Part shown: positions 44,031 through 60,067 of the stretch, in pieces
How positions within the stretch are numbered: position 1 is the stretch's first letter
Layout: each line of letters opens with the position of its first letter
Assembly (NCBI RefSeq): GCF_016811995.1
Contig: NZ_CP069159.1
Location: 1,054,001-1,118,000 of the forward strand
Reading direction: 5' to 3'
Source of the DNA: Citrobacter sp. R56
GTDB taxonomy: Bacteria > Pseudomonadota > Gammaproteobacteria > Enterobacterales > Enterobacteriaceae
DNA length: 64,000 nucleotides
Notes under the pieces: model-generated
The model's database searches: none
What the model saw: only the letters and a program-made list of their open reading frames with translations
What the model was told of the DNA's origin: nothing
Translations under genes and position numbers: made by a program

Positions 44031-44309
44031 ATGCGTAAAGCCCGTTTTACTGAGCATCAGATCATCGCTGTGATTAAGTCGGTTGAAGCCGGACGAACTG
44101 TTAAAGATGTCTGCCGGGAGGTCGGTATTTCTGAAGCCACCTGGTACAACTGGAAGCCCAGATACGGCGGCATGGAGGCTTCTGATATTAAAAAGATCAA
44201 GGGTCTTGAGGGCGAGAACCGACGTCTCAAACAGATGTTTGCCGACCTGAGCCCTGAGAACCGGGCACTGAAAGACGTTATCGAAAAAAGCTTTAAAACC
44301 CGCCTTTAA
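44031..44309 (+). CDS. IS3-family OrfA
   Basis: A 92-residue protein with a helix-turn-helix (about 5-45; SVEAGRTVKDVCREVGISEATWYNWK) and a leucine-zipper region (LEGENRRLKQMFADLSPENRALKDVIEK). In relatives it ends EKKL and a -1 slip on an A7 run gives OrfAB. Here the run has six A's (44283-44288), so OrfA continues EKSFKTRL and the usual -1 shift no longer reaches orfB. Confidence 0.8.
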   Translation: MRKARFTEHQIIAVIKSVEAGRTVKDVCREVGISEATWYNWKPRYGGMEASDIKKIKGLEGENRRLKQMFADLSPENRALKDVIEKSFKTRL

Positions 44310-45123
44310 GCATGAGCTGGTCACTCATCTGATAACGACGTTCAGACTCAGTATCCGTCAGGCCTGCCGGAGTCTGAACCTGAGCAGAACGGTTTACCAT
44401 TACCGCCCGGATACCACGCGTGACGAACCCGTTATTGTCGCGTTGCAGGCAGTGGCAGAGCGATACCCACGATACGGTTTTCCGAAACTCTTCCAGGTTC
44501 TGCGGCGGCAGGGATACCCGTGGAATCACAAAAGGATCCACCGTATTTACTGTCTGCTGAAGCTAAATTTTCGCCGTAAGGGCAAACAACGGCTGCCGGT
44601 GCGTAATCCCTCGCCACTGGTCACGCCGGAAGCGCTGAACCAGAGCTGGTCTGTCGATTTTATGCATGATTCCCTGGTCTGTGGCCATCGTTTTCGCACG
44701 TTCAATGTCGTTGATGACTTTAACCGTGAGGCGTTGTCGATTGAAATCGATCTGAATCTGCCAGCTCTGCGAGTGGTCCGTGTACTCGACAGGATCGCGG
44801 CAAATCGTGGCTATCCGGTCATGCTGCGCATGGATAATGGTCCGGAATTTATCTCACTGGCACTGGCTGAATGGGCAGAGAAACATGCAGTAAAACTGGA
44901 GTTTATCCAGCCGGGTAAGCCGACGCAGAACGCTTTCATTGAGCGCTTTAACCGGACATACCGTACAGAAATACTCGATTTTTATCTGTTCAGAACGCTG
45001 AATGAAGTACGGGAAATCACGGAAAAATGGTTGTCAGAATATAACTGTGAACGCCCGCATAAATCACTGAACAATATGACGCCGGAGGAATATCGACAAC
45101 ACCATTATTTGGCCGGGATCTAA
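44284..45123 (+). CDS. IS3-family OrfB (transposase catalytic part)
   Basis: The frame is open from before 44284 to 45123 without an early ATG, as it is normally made by frameshifting. The rve integrase core shows its DDE residues: D in SVDFMHDSL, D in LRMDNGPEF, E in NAFIERFNRTYR. The N-terminal HTH_21 part is RYPRYGFPKLFQVL...HKRIHRIYCLLKLNFRR. With the broken slip site it is probably not translated as OrfAB; an independent start at 44443 is possible. Confidence 0.75.
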   Translation, partial: KKALKPAFKHELVTHLITTFRLSIRQACRSLNLSRTVYHYRPDTTRDEPVIVALQAVAERYPRYGFPKLFQVLRRQGYPWNHKRIHRIYCLLKLNFRRKGKQRLPVRNPSPLVTPEALNQSWSVDFMHDSLVCGHRFRTFNVVDDFNREALSIEIDLNLPALRVVRVLDRIAANRGYPVMLRMDNGPEFISLALAEWAEKHAVKLEFIQPGKPTQNAFIERFNRTYRTEILDFYLFRTLNEVREITEKWLSEYNCERPHKSLNNMTPEEYRQHHYLAGI

Positions 45124-45916: not shown

Positions 45917-47269
45917 TTATGGGTTTAACTCAAACTGTTCCCCGTTTATTAATTTTCGCAATAAGTCAAGTGCCTCAGATGAGTATTTTCCGACACCACT
46001 TTTCCCAGATTTAATGAAAACATGATAATTGTTGTCTGATGCTTTAATGTTAAAGTCGGTTAGTTTTCTTAATTTTTCGAATTCTTGATTAACATAGTGC
46101 CACGATCCCATGTCGAGAATCCTTGCCAGATCAGACATTGTATATGGAAAACTAGCATTTAGTGCCTGCCCATTATTGAGTTCAGCGATACCATACATTT
46201 TTGCTAATGCATCATCATGCTCTGCAATATTGCGGAACATCTCAAAATCGTATGGAAGTTCTTGTTTAACAAGGGATTCTGATGCGAATGTGTACGTTCT
46301 GGCTAGAAATGCACGCACAAGTTTTGGATTAACGCTAATTTCCGGTGTATTAGATGATAACGCATCAAAAATCCAACCAAAATTATTTGCGTATATCACC
46401 TTGATTCGAACGCTTTTATTCTCACCAACACCGATTAGCAATTCCTTTTGATGAGAACCAGTGGCCTCGCAGTCCTTACTGAAGGAGACAAGATAAATAT
46501 TTGGAATCAATGCATTATTGGGAGCGATGATTTCATCTATATCAGAGAGAATTGCCTTTATGTTTTCATCATTGATACTGTACCCAAAGAAAAACAAGGG
46601 GTGTTCAGCAAAATATGTTAGCAACTTAGCACTGATATATTTCTTACGTTTATAGAAATCAACATAATCTTCATTTGTAATAACAATACTTTCAACTTCA
46701 TGACTGCTACCATGAATTTTCATGATTTCGCCATAAGATGAATAATTCACTTTAACAACGTTATGACCAACTATTGCCTGATAATTGTCAAATATTTTTT
46801 CTAATGTGTCGTCATAATTTGTTGTGATTATTGCATGAGGTTTTACTTTCCTTAATTTCTGAACTTCCTCTGTATATTCCATGTTCGAGAAATCAACGGA
46901 GTTTGATAATTCATTCAGAATGGATGCAATTTCATGCTTAATATAAATATCTTTTGGAGTCGTTCCTTCAAAGTATGTCTCTGGATAGCGATCCTTGCCA
47001 TCATCCCAAGCCCATTCAGCATAGAAGTCACAAAAATCGCTAGCAATCAAAGGTTTGTTATCACCCTTTGTTTGGCTGTAGTAACCATAAGGGCGTTTGA
47101 TCAAGGGGCATATTTCCGCTAGTTGCTTTAATAGACCTTCCCAGTCAGGCGCTTTTATATATCGTTGTGAAATACCTGCACCCATGAATAAAATGGGTTG
47201 GACTTGTAAGTTTTCAAGGCAAGATTTAACATCTTCGATTATTTCTTCTTGATATTCCGTAAAGTCCAT
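45917..47269 (-). CDS. SIR2-like domain protein, putative antiphage NADase
   Basis: A 450-residue protein. SIR2_2 core motifs: FMGAGIS at 28-34, TTNYDD at 149-154, IHGSS at 185-189 (catalytic His region) and FFGYSIND at 227-234. The remaining 200 residues are helical with a possible winged-helix (FPYTMSDLARILDMGSWHYVNQE). In defence systems such as DSR, Thoeris and SIR2-Argonaute this domain depletes NAD+ on phage infection. The gene stands alone, so it would be a single-gene system. Base composition is AT-rich, unlike the core. Inference: defence; not shown by the sequence itself. Confidence 0.75.
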   Translation of the reverse strand: MDFTEYQEEIIEDVKSCLENLQVQPILFMGAGISQRYIKAPDWEGLLKQLAEICPLIKRPYGYYSQTKGDNKPLIASDFCDFYAEWAWDDGKDRYPETYFEGTTPKDIYIKHEIASILNELSNSVDFSNMEYTEEVQKLRKVKPHAIITTNYDDTLEKIFDNYQAIVGHNVVKVNYSSYGEIMKIHGSSHEVESIVITNEDYVDFYKRKKYISAKLLTYFAEHPLFFFGYSINDENIKAILSDIDEIIAPNNALIPNIYLVSFSKDCEATGSHQKELLIGVGENKSVRIKVIYANNFGWIFDALSSNTPEISVNPKLVRAFLARTYTFASESLVKQELPYDFEMFRNIAEHDDALAKMYGIAELNNGQALNASFPYTMSDLARILDMGSWHYVNQEFEKLRKLTDFNIKASDNNYHVFIKSGKSGVGKYSSEALDLLRKLINGEQFELNP

Positions 47270-48157: not shown

Positions 48158-49150
48158 TCACAATCTTCCGCCGTTTTTGACTGTTGCAGATATACTTTTA
48201 GCAGGTTTTAAATGCCTGGAGATTTCTTTCTGTTCTCGACGGATTTTGTATGAATTAATTTCTTCATAATCCTTGTGTTTATTTATTTTTGATAAATCAA
48301 CCAAGAGATTATTTCTTATCATCCACTTTACAATTCGCTTGTCGATATCTTTATAGAGAGGGCCGCCTTTATATTTATAGAAGTGAATATCATGAATTTC
48401 ACTGATGAAATCAAGTATGGATAAGATTTCTTTATAATCACCAATGTAACTGTTAATGGTGAAATGGTCTTTATTAAGTTCTATTTTGAATCCATGTTCA
48501 GAAAGGTAATACAAGAAAAAGGCTGAGTCGAGATCACAAAAATCTACATGCAGCGTTCTTCTGTCAAATTTATCAATATGCGAGAGAATGATATCATGTA
48601 ATTCATAATCATATACATTTTCAATAAATCCTTTCCCTGAATGATCAATTTGATTGACATTGCATCCAGCATCTATTGCTACGGATAAAACTTCCGGGGA
48701 AAGGGGCATGAAGAGAATATTCATTCCTTTTTTATCGATGTGATTTATATCACAACCAGCATTAATTAATTCTGTCAATCCTTCAGCATTCCTGTAATGT
48801 TCAAAAATGCATGTGTAGCCATTAGTATCCGTATGCGAGGTGTCTAAACCCAGTTCAATCAGTTTCTTCAGTATTTCTGGATTTTTTTGATGAAAGAGCG
48901 CATTTTGCCCATGTCCGTTGATATGGTGTATATTAATTCCATAACTGAGCAGGCAATCCATGGCTTCCAGGGTTCTGCAGGCAAAAATGGCATTGTTGCC
49001 GTTACTGTTAACAGCATTAATGTCATAGCCTATTTTTAAAGCTTTCTTTATATCATCAGGTGATCTTGCATTGAAGAATAATTCAGAAATGGCAAGGTCT
49101 AATGCCTTTTCTAATAATCCCTTTTGTAATAAGGATATGACTAATTCCAT
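48158..49150 (-). CDS. Ankyrin-repeat protein 1
   Basis: A 330-residue protein. Residues about 30-190 are six or so degenerate ankyrin repeats of 30-33 residues with recurring units such as GYDINAVNSNGNNAIFACRT, GLDTSHTDTNGYTCIFEH and GCDINHIDKKGMNILFMP. The C-terminal third is unrelated to ankyrin and matches, by pattern, the other two ankyrin genes here (LVDLSKINKHKDYEEINSYKI; ends KNGGRL against KRL). Start at the ATG six bases after GGGGG. Role unknown; scaffold or immunity-like partner is possible. Confidence 0.75.
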   Translation of the reverse strand: MELVISLLQKGLLEKALDLAISELFFNARSPDDIKKALKIGYDINAVNSNGNNAIFACRTLEAMDCLLSYGINIHHINGHGQNALFHQKNPEILKKLIELGLDTSHTDTNGYTCIFEHYRNAEGLTELINAGCDINHIDKKGMNILFMPLSPEVLSVAIDAGCNVNQIDHSGKGFIENVYDYELHDIILSHIDKFDRRTLHVDFCDLDSAFFLYYLSEHGFKIELNKDHFTINSYIGDYKEILSILDFISEIHDIHFYKYKGGPLYKDIDKRIVKWMIRNNLLVDLSKINKHKDYEEINSYKIRREQKEISRHLKPAKSISATVKNGGRL

Positions 49151-49339
49151 AAACACCCCCATGAAAAAATGTTTAAGTCATTAGATATCAGAAATTCTGT
49201 GAAATGCAACAACTGGGGAAAGGTGTTCATGATGTGCGGAATAAAAATTTCCACAAACCACCCGTGGATACATCAGAAACACCTGCAGTAAATTTACGCC
49301 TGTAACCTGCCGTCCGGACTATAGGACCAAACCTTCGCG

Positions 49340-52135: not shown

Positions 52136-52684
52136 TCAGTTGGATATCTGTTTCTGGATTTTTTTTACAGGCTTTGTTTTGCGCCCTGCGCGATAAAAGT
52201 TGAATGAAGTGGCAAAATCTTCAGTCTCAAGTCTGGATTTACTGAATTTATCCATCAGATCTTCATTGAAACGATGAGGAATACCTTTTACGCATAAATT
52301 AGAATTCAGGTAAACCTGACCGTCTTCAGCGTTACGGATCAGTATTTTCCTCTCAAATAATTCTCTGAATGCACGTGAAACATTCGATTTATTCAGTCCT
52401 AACTCTCTGGCAGTACGTGACTGTGAAAAGTCAGGGATAATATTTCCATAATCAATGACTGAGAAAAGATAAAGAACAATTCTGAATGCCGTTGGTGTCA
52501 GATCCATTCGGGCGAGTGTGGCCGTATTATCTTTGAAGATCATCGAAAAATCGTCACGAAAGGATGTCTTTTTACAGGCACTTGCTTTAACTTTTATTTC
52601 TTCCAGATCTTCGGGCATAACATCTAATGCTTCTGCAATGATTGCTTTTTGTTCTTTAGTTAACATAACACTTGTGTTTGACAT
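52136..52684 (-). CDS. RepL/replication-type winged-helix protein
   Basis: A 182-residue protein: acidic N-terminus, then winged helix with RMDLTPTAFRIVLYLFSVID and RELGLNKSNVSRAFRELFERKILIRN, wing DGQVYLNSNLCVKGIP. This follows the RepL pattern of small-plasmid replication proteins and some satellite regulators. The C-terminus is Lys-rich. The gap to the next gene is 85 bases, so the two are probably one operon, divergent from the non-coding region at 52685. Confidence 0.6.
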   Translation of the reverse strand: MSNTSVMLTKEQKAIIAEALDVMPEDLEEIKVKASACKKTSFRDDFSMIFKDNTATLARMDLTPTAFRIVLYLFSVIDYGNIIPDFSQSRTARELGLNKSNVSRAFRELFERKILIRNAEDGQVYLNSNLCVKGIPHRFNEDLMDKFSKSRLETEDFATSFNFYRAGRKTKPVKKIQKQISN

Positions 52685-53679
52685 AATGGCTCCTTTTTTA
52701 TTATTGTGATAACAGATATGGCATATTAAATTTGTTTGTCAATATTATTAGTAATAAAAATTTAAAAATATTATATTTATTGCTCTGTGATTATTTTTTT
52801 TAGTGAAATATTAAGGGTTGTCAGAGTTATTACGAAGGGTGCTAAATTTCACCATCACCCGTTATGTCATTAATAATTTTTGGTTCTGAAAGATACAACC
52901 AATATTCTATCTTAACTTGTTGATGTAATTGATTAATTTTCTTTTTGTATTTGCAAGATAAAAGAGTGATAAAGAAACAAGAAACCGAAATTTAGCTTTA
53001 GACTGACACAAAATTCAATTGTACACAGTTTGATAAACACTGCTATTGCTGATTTTCCTTCGTAATATTATTCCTTAAGTGAAGCCTGCGCACCTGTATG
53101 TTGCGCCACTGGGCTTCAGAACATTGCTATAGTGTTTAACTGTCAGTAGAAATACGCTTCGCGCAGGAGTTCAGACAGTTGGGTTTAGCTCTCAGCACAA
53201 ATACGCTTCGCGCAGAGATTCAGACTGCTGAGTTTAGCGAAAGAGTGGACCCGACTACATGATTTACCCGTTAACTTAATACGGCTCACGCCGGAACCCC
53301 TTCGGAAAAATCCTTTCTGCTTCAGCGAGTGAGTGCTGTGGGCACTCAGCGGCGCTGCAAGAGGGATTAAACGTTGGGTTTTCATCTGACGGGTAAAAAT
53401 AATCTACATATATCTGTCGTCGGGGGCGTGAGCCGGTGCGTAGCACTCTCTCAAAAAAATTCCTGAAGGGGTTTTATCTGAAATATGGAAACTACCTGGC
53501 TTTTGAAAAAAAGAAGTGGTAATGCAATCGATCGGACTCAACATTGCAACAGCGTAAGCTGTTTTCAGTATTAAAAGAATAAATAGTTGTCATTTTAAAA
53601 TAAAACATTTTCAATTTTGTATTGATTTAAATTTTAAAGCTGATAGTACTTAATTATAAAAACAAAAAAGGAGAGGGTT
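52685..53679. other. Large non-coding region with structured repeats
   Basis: About 1 kb with no credible gene. It holds a run of palindromes: GAAGCC...GGCTTC near 53080-53117, the two covarying hairpins at 53138-53232, GAGTGC...GCACTC near 53330-53346, and two short motif pairs in opposite orientation (CGGCTCACGCC at 53282 with GGCGTGAGCCG at 53425; AACCCCTTCGGA at 53295 with TCCTGAAGGGGTT at 53461). The layout suggests a control or replication locus. The 66-codon minus frame at 53185 reads across the hairpins and is probably not a gene. Confidence 0.6.
53138..53232 (+). ncRNA. Two tandem hairpins with identical core and covarying stems
   Basis: Unit 1 (53138-53180) has stem AACTGTC / GACAGTT; unit 2 (53191-53232) has stem CTCAGCA / TGCTGAG. 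Between the arms both carry the same 17-base AAATACGCTTCGCGCAG (53150-53166 and 53199-53215), with an inner CGC-TTC-GCG mini-hairpin and a common G.TTCAGAC; a shared GTTTAGC follows each. All seven stem pairs are kept although the bases differ, the sign of selection on structure. P4-type satellites regulate immunity with small RNAs and paired target sites; this is a possible analogue. Confidence 0.6.
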
Positions 53680-54105
53680 ATGAGTAATATTTGTGTTTCT
53701 TCTCAGGAAGAAAAGTTTATATTTGTTGTTGATAAATATATAACACACCATCGCGACAGTGTTAATAACAATATTTTTTACAGAAAACTTTATGTGCTTT
53801 TCGCTGGATACCATCTGAAGTATTTTTATTCACGGGCGCAATATCGCAATTCGTGTTATCACGTTGATAATATCATGCAGATGTTTATGGGTGTCGTTTC
53901 TACCCTGAAGGCCCCTCTGCTCAGGCAACTCGCAAACAGTGACACATTACTGCATTGCCTGAATTCGCTCGTGAATTATATTTCAGGCAATCTGGATGAA
54001 GCAGAGCACATTTATGCTGATTTACTGGCACAGTATGAAAAGAAACGCATTGCACGTTCTCTGGCTTATACACCACCAGGATCCGTGGTCAGGAAAAGGC
54101 TGTGA
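53680..54105 (+). CDS. Hypothetical protein of the mobilizable element
   Basis: A 141-residue soluble helical protein (SQEEKFIFVVDKYITHHRDS... NLDEAEHIYADLLAQYEKKRI). AAAAAGGAGAGGG precedes the ATG at ideal spacing. It reads away from the structured repeats and towards the lipoprotein genes. No family recognised. Confidence 0.65.
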   Translation: MSNICVSSQEEKFIFVVDKYITHHRDSVNNNIFYRKLYVLFAGYHLKYFYSRAQYRNSCYHVDNIMQMFMGVVSTLKAPLLRQLANSDTLLHCLNSLVNYISGNLDEAEHIYADLLAQYEKKRIARSLAYTPPGSVVRKRL

Positions 54106-55485: not shown

Positions 55486-56745
55486 TTATGGTGCAGGATG
55501 GGGGTTATTTTTAACTAATTGTTCTTTAATGGGATTTGTTGTCATGGAATGACAGGGTGTCAGAAGATGCAGGTGCAGGATTTGGTGGAAAGGATGTGCA
55601 GTGGCATGTAACAGAGACATGCCCCTGCGCCTGAGAAGTGCCACAATATGGCCGAGCAATACAAGCCACGAATGCAGACGACGCTGGCGGGGTATCTGAC
55701 GAGCTGTATTGTGCAGTTTGCTCCTGAGTTGAATGACACCCACTGTTTCCTGTTGTCTTTCCAGACGAATTTTTTCTTCAAGCTGAAGGATTTTCTCCAG
55801 AATCGTTTCCCGGTTTGCAACCTGTTCTTCAGGCTCGCATGATGGCACTGGCACTGGCACTGGCACTGGCACTGGCACTGGCACTGGCACTGGCACTGGC
55901 ACTGGCACTGGCACTGGCACTGGTACAGTCTGTTGTTGCTCTTTTTTCAGTAAGGCCAGGTGCTCTGGTGTAAAATCAATCTGCGTTTGCAGAGAAGACC
56001 AGCCATACTTTTTTCCAAGCTGAGACGCTTTAAAGGCAATACCCTGGTACTGAAATGAAAATCCATTCATTTTTCCGGTCGACGCGATATTGGGTTTACA
56101 GGTCACACCTTTCTGTTCCAGCATGTCGATAAAAGTCAGTAAATCGGGACGATGCGTTAAGACATTATCAATCAGGGTCTGCAACTGAGACTTAGGGCAG
56201 GGAACTGCTGTTCGTTCTGCCATCATCAGCTCATTGCGTGAGGGTTTTCTTTTAGCCTGAGGGCGACTGCTGGTTGCAGGTGTTGTTTCAGTGAGTCCGT
56301 GTATTCGCTCCAGTTCGCTGATAATGCGGGTGCTGATGAGATTTTCATTTTTCCCCATGTACAGCTTTCCACCGGCCATGTTAATGCGACTTGCAATGAT
56401 ATGGATATGCTGCCCGTCGGTATCATCGTGAAGGATATAACAGCGAAGGTGCGTTTCAGTGAACCCCATCCGGGTCATATAATCGTCGGCGAATGCCGCC
56501 CATTGTCTGACTGACAGTGTTTCTCCCTTTGGCAGGCGAAGCGAATTATGCCAGACAGGTTTGGCGACACCGGGGCGCAGTAGTCTTGTGCCTTCAAATT
56601 CACTGATAAGTTCAGCAGCAGTGCTTCCCGTCATGTTGCCACCGATAATATAAGGCGTGATTTTGTGGTGAGATCCTGACTTAAGGCTATAGAGAACCAC
56701 ACCTGCAAACTGTTTACCCCGCTTTATTTTCTGCATGCCTTTCAC
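55486..56745 (-). CDS. mobA: MOBP-type relaxase (MobA)
   Basis: A 419-residue mobilization nuclease. Residues 1 to about 165 are the relaxase domain: KRGKQFAGVVLYSL, IIGGNMTG, PVWHNSLRLPKGE, and the histidine motif DGQHIHIIASRI; the nicking Tyr is probably in YSLKSG near residue 20. A second region (about 190-265) resembles a DNA-binding extension. Then comes a run of about 13 Pro-Val pairs and a basic C-terminus. Its ATG overlaps the mobC stop by four bases. It would nick oriT for transfer in trans by a conjugative plasmid. Confidence 0.85.
   Translation of the reverse strand: MKGMQKIKRGKQFAGVVLYSLKSGSHHKITPYIIGGNMTGSTAAELISEFEGTRLLRPGVAKPVWHNSLRLPKGETLSVRQWAAFADDYMTRMGFTETHLRCYILHDDTDGQHIHIIASRINMAGGKLYMGKNENLISTRIISELERIHGLTETTPATSSRPQAKRKPSRNELMMAERTAVPCPKSQLQTLIDNVLTHRPDLLTFIDMLEQKGVTCKPNIASTGKMNGFSFQYQGIAFKASQLGKKYGWSSLQTQIDFTPEHLALLKKEQQQTVPVPVPVPVPVPVPVPVPVPVPVPVPVPSCEPEEQVANRETILEKILQLEEKIRLERQQETVGVIQLRSKLHNTARQIPRQRRLHSWLVLLGHIVALLRRRGMSLLHATAHPFHQILHLHLLTPCHSMTTNPIKEQLVKNNPHPAP
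55844..55921. repeat. GGCACT hexanucleotide tandem repeat inside the relaxase gene
   Basis: Thirteen perfect copies of GGCACT on the plus strand (CCAGTG read as Pro-Val on the coding strand), flanked by one imperfect unit GGTACA. Copy changes leave the frame intact but alter linker length. Confidence 0.9.
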
Positions 56746-57323: not shown

Positions 57324-58268
57324 TTACAATCTACGTTTTACTGGCATTAAAGAGATTGTTTGTTTCATAATTTCGCTAAGTTTCTTTCTCTCATGTTCTG
57401 CTATATATTTACAAATCTCATCATGTCGAATATGCTGTTCCAGTTGTTTTTTATCTATTTTGATGTCATTGCGGATAAACCATTTAATGGTTTCAATGTC
57501 CCCGCGTAAATCATAACCTCGCAGTACAATATGGCGAAAATGTGTGTTGCTGATATCTGTCTTCTTCTTTAGTTCACTGAAGAAAGAGCTCATTTCATTT
57601 TCATTGGCACTTAGATAAACCTGGCAGTTATCAGAGATAGTAAAGTTAAGGTTTTTCTTCTGAAGCAAATCCATTATCTGCAGACTTTCGCTGTTGAGGT
57701 AGTTGAAAATTACTGGACTGCTATCCTTCATACTAATATGACGAATGAGCATTTTGGCTTTGAAATCGCCTAATGAATAGCAAATTTCAAAAATACCGTG
57801 ACCCTGGTTATCTTTGTGGTTTATATCGCAACCGGCCTGTACCATCAAATCAAAGATAGAGTGATTTTTTACGTAAAAAAGTATTGTTCTTCCGCATTTA
57901 TCCACATTGTTGACATTAATTCCAGCATTGATCAGGGTTTTGCAACAGGATATATTATCAGCTAACGAGCATAAACAGGTTTGGCCGAGACCATTTTTGT
58001 GGTGTATATCTACGCCGGAATCAATCAATTTTTTCAGTATGTGAGGATTTCGCTGGTTAAACAAAACATTGTGACCATAGTTGTCAGAATGGTTAAAATC
58101 TATTCCTGCTTTAACCAGAGTGTCAATCATTTTTGGGTTTTTACAGTAAAACAGTATATTTCTTCCAAACGAATCCAGTGTATTAATATCGGAGCCTGCA
58201 TTAATGCAAGCCTGAATGTCTTTTGGAGTTTTACAAGAGAGTAATGCATTTATTGCGTTGTTATTCAT
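57324..58268 (-). CDS. Ankyrin-repeat protein 2
   Basis: A 314-residue protein with about six ankyrin units (SDINTLDSFGRNILFYCKN, GIDFNHSDNYGHNVLFNQRN, GVDIHHKNGLGQTCLC, GINVNNVDKCGRTILFYVKN, GCDINHKDNQGHG) and a non-ankyrin C-terminal third containing LRGYDLRGDIETIKWFIRNDIKIDKKQLEQHIR. The end (MKQTISLMPVKRRL) matches the endings of the other two ankyrin genes. Downstream of a separate 146-residue gene, same strand, 15 bases apart. Confidence 0.78.
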   Translation of the reverse strand: MNNNAINALLSCKTPKDIQACINAGSDINTLDSFGRNILFYCKNPKMIDTLVKAGIDFNHSDNYGHNVLFNQRNPHILKKLIDSGVDIHHKNGLGQTCLCSLADNISCCKTLINAGINVNNVDKCGRTILFYVKNHSIFDLMVQAGCDINHKDNQGHGIFEICYSLGDFKAKMLIRHISMKDSSPVIFNYLNSESLQIMDLLQKKNLNFTISDNCQVYLSANENEMSSFFSELKKKTDISNTHFRHIVLRGYDLRGDIETIKWFIRNDIKIDKKQLEQHIRHDEICKYIAEHERKKLSEIMKQTISLMPVKRRL

Positions 58269-59080: not shown

Positions 59081-60067
59081 TCATAATCTTTTTTTTGTAA
59101 TTGCTTTACAGGTAACTGGTTGAAGCGTTGTTCGTAAAACCTTTTGCTCTCTCTGTAATTTGTCCTGGAGGATTTCTTCATAAAAGTAGCGTTCTTTTAG
59201 CGATTCTATATCAACTTTTATATCATTACGTATTAACCATTTAATTAGCAGTCTTCCTGCATAGTGCGTCAGTAGATATGTACTGCTTATGTAAAACCAA
59301 ACATGACTAATGTCTGTCAGCTTCTTTAGTTGTAAAATTAATTTTTTAGCGTCGGCATTTGTTGGTGTGATAATGCACTTATCACTTATCTCAAATTCAT
59401 TTTTTTGCTTTATAAGTAACGACAATAGCTCAATTGATTTAAATGTAATGTTCGTGAATACAATTTTTGAACTGTCTTTAAGATGAATATTACGGATAAG
59501 AAAACGAATGTAGTTATCGTTTTTAGATTCCCAGTGCGTATATTTACCAACTATGCTATTATTTTCTGACTGCCAGTGATCGAATGCTGTCTGTCCACTT
59601 ATATTTTTATGATTAATGTCGCAACCAGCCTCAATTAGTGCATCGTACACATATCCTTCAAATGGAATGAAAAGAAAGGAATTGCCATAGCTATCTTTGG
59701 TATGGATATCTAGTCCTGCTTTGATAAGATATTTTACTAACCCTGGTGAAACATCAATATGTTGAATCGCAAGGGTGCCTGACTTATTCCGGTGGTTAAC
59801 ATTAATACCATTGCTGACAAGAAGTTCCACTGTTTCAACATTTTGAGCATAGAATAATGCATTATTACCGTCATTATCCAAGTGGTGAATGTCAATGTCA
59901 GCGTCAATCATTGCCTGTATAGCTTCAGGTACATTACAGGTAAAAAGAGCAGTTTGACCTTTACTATTGCACATATTTATATCCATGCCAGCCTTAAGGC
60001 AACGAAGGACACCATTTTTAGACTTTACACGGAATAGGTTATTTTTATTATTTTCTCTTGATATCAT
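59081..60067 (-). CDS. Ankyrin-repeat protein 3
   Basis: A 328-residue protein with ankyrin units GMDINMCNSKGQTALFTCNV, DIDIHHLDNDGNNALFYAQN, GINVNHRNKSGTLAIQHID, GLDIHTKDSYGNSFLFIP and GCDINHKNISGQTAF, and a C-terminal part (SDKCIITPTNADAKKLILQLKKLTDISHVWF, RLLIKWLIRNDIKVDIESLKE) clearly related to protein 2. It ends KAITKKRL. ACAAAGGAGATAAACA is a good ribosome site. Confidence 0.78.
   Translation of the reverse strand: MISRENNKNNLFRVKSKNGVLRCLKAGMDINMCNSKGQTALFTCNVPEAIQAMIDADIDIHHLDNDGNNALFYAQNVETVELLVSNGINVNHRNKSGTLAIQHIDVSPGLVKYLIKAGLDIHTKDSYGNSFLFIPFEGYVYDALIEAGCDINHKNISGQTAFDHWQSENNSIVGKYTHWESKNDNYIRFLIRNIHLKDSSKIVFTNITFKSIELLSLLIKQKNEFEISDKCIITPTNADAKKLILQLKKLTDISHVWFYISSTYLLTHYAGRLLIKWLIRNDIKVDIESLKERYFYEEILQDKLQREQKVLRTTLQPVTCKAITKKRL

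What the first reader, a model, noticed from the sequence alone, without database searches (positions are those of the whole stretch)
53138..53232. Tandem hairpins with identical 17-base core and compensating stems
Two units 49 bases apart carry the same AAATACGCTTCGCGCAG inside, but their 7-bp stems are completely different in sequence and both pair perfectly. Independent change on both arms while keeping pairing is what a selected RNA (or cruciform) shows. It lies in a 1-kb non-coding region of a mobilizable/AlpA-type island, where P4-like satellites keep RNA-based immunity. It may be a new small-RNA or replication-control element.
Basis: partly seen in the sequence, partly recalled or inferred. 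Interest (0 to 1): 0.75.

Follow-up and report, generated by a model that had tools for sequence, protein, structure and literature searches.

The report
Repeats in a mobile island's replication origin

Summary
The repeats and both 7-bp arms are real. The arms sit in different registers in the two units, so they are not one stem with compensating changes. Of 38 units compared (26 distinct), 5, from three loci at least 97% identical, form either described stem fully. Islands carry 0 to 3 units, spaced 49 bp in 20 of 20 spacings among 14 arrays; one further locus has 39 bp (by eye). Some covariation exceeds shuffles, in the described registers and in a shorter 5-bp stem, but pairing is often broken.

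The surroundings point to a replication origin. The neighbouring HTH gene is homologous to Rep proteins of the small plasmids pHW126, pIGRK and pIGMS31. A CR-like sequence lies at a similar distance from rep as in related 2.7-2.8-kb plasmids. A hairpin at 53320-53359 recurs, paired through changes on both arms, upstream of Rep relatives in three other loci. The expected four iterons were not found, so I do not file it as a pHW126-type replicon.

Best reading: origin/priming region of an integrative mobilizable element; the 49-mers are accessory DNA repeats. P4-type RNA immunity is not supported.

The parts
53134..53182 (.). 49-bp unit 1 (core 53150-53166; arms 53138-53144/53174-53180)
53183..53231 (.). 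49-bp unit 2 (core 53199-53215; arms 53191-53197/53226-53232, in another register)
53081..53117 (.). interrupted palindrome GAAGCC..GGGCTTC; one C-G to T-A double change in 3 of 11 distinct sequences
53320..53359 (+). conserved hairpin (CAGCG/CGCTG outside, TGAGTGC/GCACTCA inside); 3 of 12 pairs change on both sides over 16 copies; ssi-like position
53282..53293 (+). small hairpin CGGC-N4-GCCG with variable loop
53425..53446 (+). two mini-hairpins GGC-GTGA-GCC and GTGC-GTA-GCAC, stems nearly invariant in 18 sequences
52953..52987 (-). CR-like conserved block, in Rep orientation CGGTTTCTTGTTTCTTTATCACTCTTTTATCTTGC; its first 16 bases match the 2.7-2.8-kb plasmids at 15 of 16
52136..52684 (-). 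winged-HTH protein homologous to Rep of pIGMS31, pHW126 and pIGRK; presumed replication initiator
53680..54105 (+). conserved 141-aa ORF of unknown function bounding the non-coding region

Best explanation
The 1-kb gap is the replication-origin and priming region of an integrative mobilizable element. The divergent HTH gene (52136-52684) encodes its Rep initiator, related to that of pHW126/pIGRK plasmids. After excision Rep would act near the CR-like block (52953-52987). The hairpin set at 53282-53446 would fold when single-stranded and prime the second strand (ssi-like). The 49-bp units lie between the hairpins and the CR-like block; they are tandem DNA repeats present in 0 to 3 copies, most likely accessory protein-binding or copy-control sites. 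Shown: the homologies, the order of parts, the repeat copy-number variation, and the hairpin's pairing. Inferred: that the element replicates, that the hairpin primes, and what the 49-mers do.
For: The HTH protein matches 62 plasmid records by tblastn at E up to 0.1, among them pIGMS31 (40.5%, 3e-23), pHW126 (33.7% over about half the protein, 1e-8), pIGRK (26.5%, 2e-7) and 2.67-2.83-kb plasmids at 43-46%. An E. coli H240 protein bridges them: 28% to the window protein and 38% to pIGRK RepR. An island relative (L003) and pIGRK RepR pass Pfam's RepL cut-off. The CR-like block starts at -303 from rep; it matches three 2.7-2.8-kb plasmids at 15 of 16 bases at -292/-293, and 0 of 200 shuffles reach the score for each. 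Hairpin 53320-53359: 98.4% of 192 cells paired, 3 pairs with double changes, covariation score above all 500 shuffles. Covariance models found it near Rep relatives in L153, and in L093 and L102; in these and in the island it is on the strand opposite rep and upstream of it. In pIGRK the order is ssi, CR, iterons, repR (PMC6854812, section 5 read). The 49-mers vary as whole units (0-3) with 49-bp spacing.
Against: No four-fold 20-bp iterons were found in 52700-53700. The CR-like match is not significant against pIGRK, pIGMS31, pHW126, L102, L153 or L093. Hairpin model R3 had no match up to E 10 in the eight small plasmids searched (L088-L091, L098-L101), so the ssi equivalence rests on position. 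No replication, excision or priming was tested. The window protein itself does not reach Pfam's RepL cut-off; pHW126 Rep falls just below it. Two of the three covarying hairpin pairs mainly reflect one split between the islands and the rest, and the number of pairs with double changes is not above shuffles (232 of 500). A third hairpin copy in G031 (L157) has no Rep relative within its 1740-bp locus. G012, weakly HTH-positive, had no hairpin match; L094 (G650) had only a weak one (E 0.19). One R2 match (G022) has no Rep relative beside it. The 49-mers are absent from islands whose Rep and hairpin remain (L003, L010, L011, L080), so they are not essential.
Confidence: 0.62

Rival explanations
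1. Each 49-mer is a structured single-strand element (RNA or ssDNA): an outer stem, best as 5 bp (alignment columns 10-14 with 48-52), around a near-invariant TTC/GAA-triloop mini-hairpin.
For: 5-bp stem plus 3-bp core: outer stem 87.8% of cells paired over 18 units, 2 of 5 outer pairs with changes on both sides, covariation score above all 500 shuffles. On the minus strand the core reads TGCGC-GAA-GCGTA-TTT and is terminator-like. In the 5-bp stem the one-sided changes (UA to UG 6 and 4 cells, GC to GU 2 cells) are wobble pairs on the plus strand.
Against: The units form about three position classes, so independent events are few and shuffles overstate. Pair 11-51 fails in 7 of 18 and 13-49 in 3 of 18 units, including units that look like recombinants. 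Any-register 7-bp pairing with G-T allowed is found in 9 of 26 distinct units against 5.7 in flank shuffles, 21 of 200 shuffles as high. RNAalifold keeps only the 3-bp core. Some cores change in stem or loop (L004, L002, L129, L131).
Confidence: 0.2
2. A P4/C4-like antisense-RNA immunity or other trans-acting small RNA made from the units.
For: Non-coding region in an AlpA-type island; the 421-nt region 53060-53480 folds better than shuffles (z -4.07).
Against: No Rfam match up to E 5 in 52600-53800. No antisense copy of the core in the window. In the genome the core's only exact matches are the two units; at up to 3 mismatches there are 13 forward and 14 reverse matches against 11 and 7 for the pattern read backwards, a reverse excess, but none of the reverse matches has fewer than 2 mismatches. 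No promoter excess. The two units alone give z -0.69.
Confidence: 0.06
3. The units are operator sites for a dimeric DNA-binding protein of the island (TACGC-TTC-GCGCA is a near-dyad), regulating a promoter rather than replication.
For: Near-invariant 16-bp core with diverged flanks and 49-bp spacing.
Against: No promoter-like site of the simple scan lies next to the units; both flanking genes start about 450 bp away. The protein is unknown.
Confidence: 0.12

Closest known systems
pHW126-like plasmids (pIGRK, pHW126, pIGMS31) REP module
   Same: Homologous winged-HTH Rep; CR-like block about 300 bp upstream of rep (shared with the 2.7-2.8-kb relatives); palindromic element beyond the CR on the side away from rep (PMC6854812 section 5)
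   Different: Chromosomal island; no four 20-bp iterons found; hairpin model does not match the plasmids; extra palindrome and 49-mers between hairpins and CR-like block
SGI1, an integrative mobilizable element with its own oriV and rep
   Same: Mobilizable island with a plasmid-type Rep beside a repeat-bearing non-coding region (PMC7826253, passages)
   Different: SGI1 uses an IncN2/N3-related RepA with oriV downstream of repA and integrates at trmE (abstract start in a listing)
P4/P1 C4-type antisense RNA immunity (recalled)
   Same: Non-coding hairpins in an AlpA-type island
   Different: No Rfam match, no antisense copy of the core in the window

Membership tests
pHW126-like REP module | Rep protein homologous to RepR/Rep | tested here: met
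pHW126-like REP module | CR, a ~20-bp region shared by all members | tested here: inconclusive
   15 of 16 bases match in L088, L089 and L091 (0 of 200 shuffles each), but no significant match to pIGRK, pIGMS31 or pHW126
pHW126-like REP module | four ~20-bp iterons between CR and rep | tested here: not met
   no such direct-repeat family in 52700-53700, though four 20-nt copies are present in each of L088, L090 and L091
pHW126-like REP module | ssi-like palindrome beyond CR | tested here: inconclusive
   hairpin in the equivalent position, but the eight small plasmids do not match model R3
pHW126-like REP module | autonomous replication from CR plus iterons with Rep in trans | not testable with these tools
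   needs a bench test
P4/C4 antisense RNA | match to an Rfam family | tested here: not met
   52600-53800, E up to 5; whole window at gathering scores, two matches, both elsewhere
P4/C4 antisense RNA | complementary target sites of the shared core nearby | tested here: not met
   genome-wide only matches with 2 or more mismatches besides the units
structured tandem small RNA | the two described stems are kept in homologues | tested here: not met
   full stems in 5 of 38 units; 66.7% and 65.1% of cells paired in the described registers, though covariation scores exceed 500 and 496 of 500 shuffles
replicating integrative mobilizable element (SGI1-like in action) | relaxase, Rep and integrase in one element | tested here: inconclusive
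   relaxase and Rep relative in the window; integrase seen beside ssrA in the related island L002 but not sought or located for this island; ssrA lies about 10 kb beyond the window

The most novel reading that the evidence does not exclude
A family of enterobacterial integrative mobilizable elements replicates with pHW126/RepL-type initiators and an undescribed hairpin priming module that is shared, through compensating changes, by Rep-bearing loci in several genera; the 0-to-3-copy 49-bp array is a recombination-adjustable copy-control or incompatibility device.
Probability: 0.3. Interest if true: 0.62.

Novelty: new variant of a known kind. Interest (0 to 1): 0.42.

Why it matters
If right, these mobilizable islands, some with defence-type cargo, are not passive passengers but carry a replicon related to one described from tiny cryptic plasmids. 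That makes their copy number, stability and incompatibility testable, and gives a structural marker (the 53320-53359 hairpin) for finding such origins in DNA annotated as empty intergenic sequence.

Tried and rejected
Compensating 7-bp stems: rejected as described (registers differ; complete in 5 of 38 units), while noting the covariation above shuffles. RNA fold of the two units: not better than shuffles. Rfam: nothing at E up to 5 in 52600-53800; on seven related loci only three sub-threshold microRNA-model matches, at the palindromic repeats of L102 and L153. Long-range pairing of 53282-53292 with 53425-53435, suggested: not conserved in the alignment and not in its consensus fold; local hairpins explain it better. 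Exact core search: 56 genome and 6 viral stretches; 12 were read in context (6 genome, 6 viral), of which six are island loci (L014, L032, L036, L048, L049, L064), and all loci fetched by then were compared by blastn with 53041-53500; other exact matches look like chance. A plasmid match of the non-coding DNA: none. Rep in phages: none. The 141-aa ORF on plasmids: none. AlphaFold of the Rep with a shallow alignment: mean pLDDT 51.6, too low, so no fold search was run. PDB sequence search: two weak HTH matches. R2 match G022: treated as chance. Papers: PMC6854812 sections 5 and 11 and passages; PMC2831885 and PMC7826253 passages; others were seen in search listings only. No paper describing a pHW126-like Rep in an ssrA island appeared in the listings of searches of this open-access library; that is not proof of absence. 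The extra stability of GCGAAGC DNA mini-hairpins and the C4 RNA family are recalled; only listed papers.

Full report
OBSERVATION. The two units exist as described: 49-nt direct repeats at 53134-53182 and 53183-53231, 80% identical, with the 17-base core at 53150 and 53199 and no other copy in the window even at 3 mismatches. Both pairs of 7-bp arms are perfect. Flank shuffles give arms that long in 0.29% and 0.68% of 20,000 cases, so the arms in this lineage are unlikely by chance taken alone. However, aligned on the core, the arms occupy positions 5-11/41-47 in unit 1 and 9-15/44-50 in unit 2. They are not two states of one stem. RNA folding of the two-unit stretch is ordinary (z -0.69) and its best structure uses neither stem. 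As DNA, unit 1 forms its stem on both strands; unit 2's stem is in the plus-strand MFE but not the centroid.

HOMOLOGUES OF THE UNITS. The 990-bp gap has a match in 181 of 5426 complete E. coli genomes (145 over at least 80% of it), all on chromosomes, and occurs in other enterobacterial genera. I extracted the Rep-to-ORF interval, or part of it, from 29 loci, window included. Among these, 14 distinct arrays have two or three pattern-recognised cores, and all 20 spacings are exactly 49 bp. L079 and L084 have one core. L131 has one plus, by eye, a second with one change. L129, by eye, has two degenerate cores 39 bp apart. L003, L010, L011 and L080 have none. In 38 units from the first 22 loci (26 distinct), the described stems are complete in 5, from the window, L004 and L064, the latter two 97.6% and 98.3% identical to the window over 460 bp. 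L004's second unit keeps its arms one base shifted. In any register and with G-T allowed, 9 of 26 distinct units reach 7 of 7, against 5.7 in flank shuffles (21 of 200 as high).

On an 18-unit alignment, register 1 pairs in 66.7% of cells (shuffled 59.0%), with 4 of 7 pairs changed on both sides and a covariation score above all 500 shuffles; register 2 pairs in 65.1% (shuffled 60.9%), score reached by 4 of 500. A shorter stem, columns 10-14 with 48-52, pairs in 87.8% of cells, with double changes at 2 of 5 pairs and a score above all 500 shuffles. I weigh this lightly. The units fall into about three position classes, so the events are few, and the tool warns that related sequences can exceed every shuffle. 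Pair 11-51 fails in 7 of 18 and 13-49 in 3 of 18 units. Several two-unit arrays (L005, L032, L036, L014) look like recombinants carrying one class's left half and another's right half, with mismatched stems (inference). RNAalifold predicts only the 3-bp core. A covariance model of the units found only loci already known, in 5 of 392 genomes.

WHAT THE REGION IS. The gap lies between a minus-strand winged-HTH gene and a plus-strand 141-aa ORF in an island with AlpA, a relaxase and a weakly NikA-like protein. Syntenic E. coli loci start beside an AIDA-type/ypjA gene, and L002 ends with an integrase next to ssrA; here ssrA lies about 10 kb beyond the window. The HTH protein is homologous to the Rep proteins of pIGMS31, pHW126 and pIGRK. 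Among small plasmids its best matches are 2.7-2.8-kb ones whose listed genes are this one and, in two of four fetched, a recombination protein; the best match of all, 69%, is a 3.7-kb linear Salmonella record (L087). Pfam's RepL cut-off is passed by an island relative (L003) and by pIGRK RepR, not by pHW126 Rep (just below) nor by the window protein, which gave weak HTH, Rep3_N and phage-O matches. In pIGRK the order is ssi, CR, four iterons, repR; CR plus iterons are the origin, and losing ssi raises copy number and causes multimers (PMC6854812 section 5). Read in Rep orientation, the island has hairpins, 49-mers, a palindrome, a CR-like block, then rep. The CR-like block is conserved in the 22 aligned sequences and matches three 2.7-2.8-kb plasmids at 15 of 16 bases (0 of 200 shuffles each), but pIGRK, pIGMS31, pHW126, L102, L153 and L093 not significantly. 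Iterons were not found here, although three small plasmids examined have them. I therefore do not call this a pHW126-type replicon, only a likely relative that works alike.

THE HAIRPIN THAT DOES COVARY. The block at 53282-53361 is the part that matches most widely. A covariance model of it hit 9 of 392 family genomes, own included; G367 (L153) and G022 were new. G367 encodes a Rep relative (29%, 2e-18) nearby; G022 does not. L153 holds three copies with another inner stem. L102 (E. coli H240 record) and L093 (G031, found first by its Rep) hold two each. In these loci and the island the hairpin lies upstream of rep on the opposite strand; L102, L153 and L093 also show about four iteron-like repeats between it and rep. 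A further copy in G031 (L157) has no Rep relative in its 1740-bp locus. Over 16 copies, L157 included, 98.4% of 192 cells pair, 3 of 12 pairs change on both sides, and no shuffle of 500 reaches the covariation score, although 232 of 500 reach the number of such pairs. Two of those pairs mainly reflect one split (islands against the rest); the third (G-C, G-U, A-U) shows intermediate states. A model of the hairpin alone found 2 of 266 order genomes, the own one and G031; G012, weakly HTH-positive, had none, and L094 (G650) only E 0.19. It did not match the eight small plasmids up to E 10. The palindrome at 53081-53117 has one double change in 3 of 11 distinct sequences.

MECHANISM. Most likely (0.62): origin and priming region of an integrative mobilizable element that can replicate when excised, as shown for SGI1 with a different Rep (PMC7826253 passages). 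The covarying hairpin and its neighbours would be the single-strand priming site. The 49-mers, dispensable and variable in number, would be accessory Rep- or host-protein sites tuning copy number. All steps of function are inferred. Rivals are listed with their odds; RNA immunity is the least supported.

VERDICT. The locus is more interesting than the units: a probable new variant of a known kind, a plasmid-type replicon inside a mobilizable island with its own structured element.

Noticed in passing
window 44295-44437 (-): Rfam isrN small-RNA match (144.7 bits) beside a transposase-like ORF at 44443-45123.
   Followed up: no
window 45917-47269, 48158-49162, 57324-58268, 59081-60067 (-): Possible defence-type cargo: 57324-58268 has Pfam ankyrin repeats; in the syntenic E24377A island (L001) the annotation lists a SIR2-family protein, three ankyrin-repeat proteins and a Kiwa KwaB-like gene.
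   Followed up: no
window 55486-56745 (-): The relaxase has a long VPVPVP dipeptide tract in its C-terminal half.
   Followed up: no
L003 73-3460: In E. coli AH65 the slot next to the rep-like gene is annotated as a retron Eco8 system; in L007 a tyrosine recombinase next to mutS lies there instead.
   Followed up: no
L129 about 2470-2556: An IMG/VR contig whose two degenerate units are spaced 39 instead of 49 bp, about one helical turn less (by eye).
   Followed up: no
L102 3558-3645, L153 about 1810-1910, L093 2143-2225: Rep relatives with about four iteron-like repeats, palindromic in L102 and L153, of different sequence in L093.
   Followed up: partly
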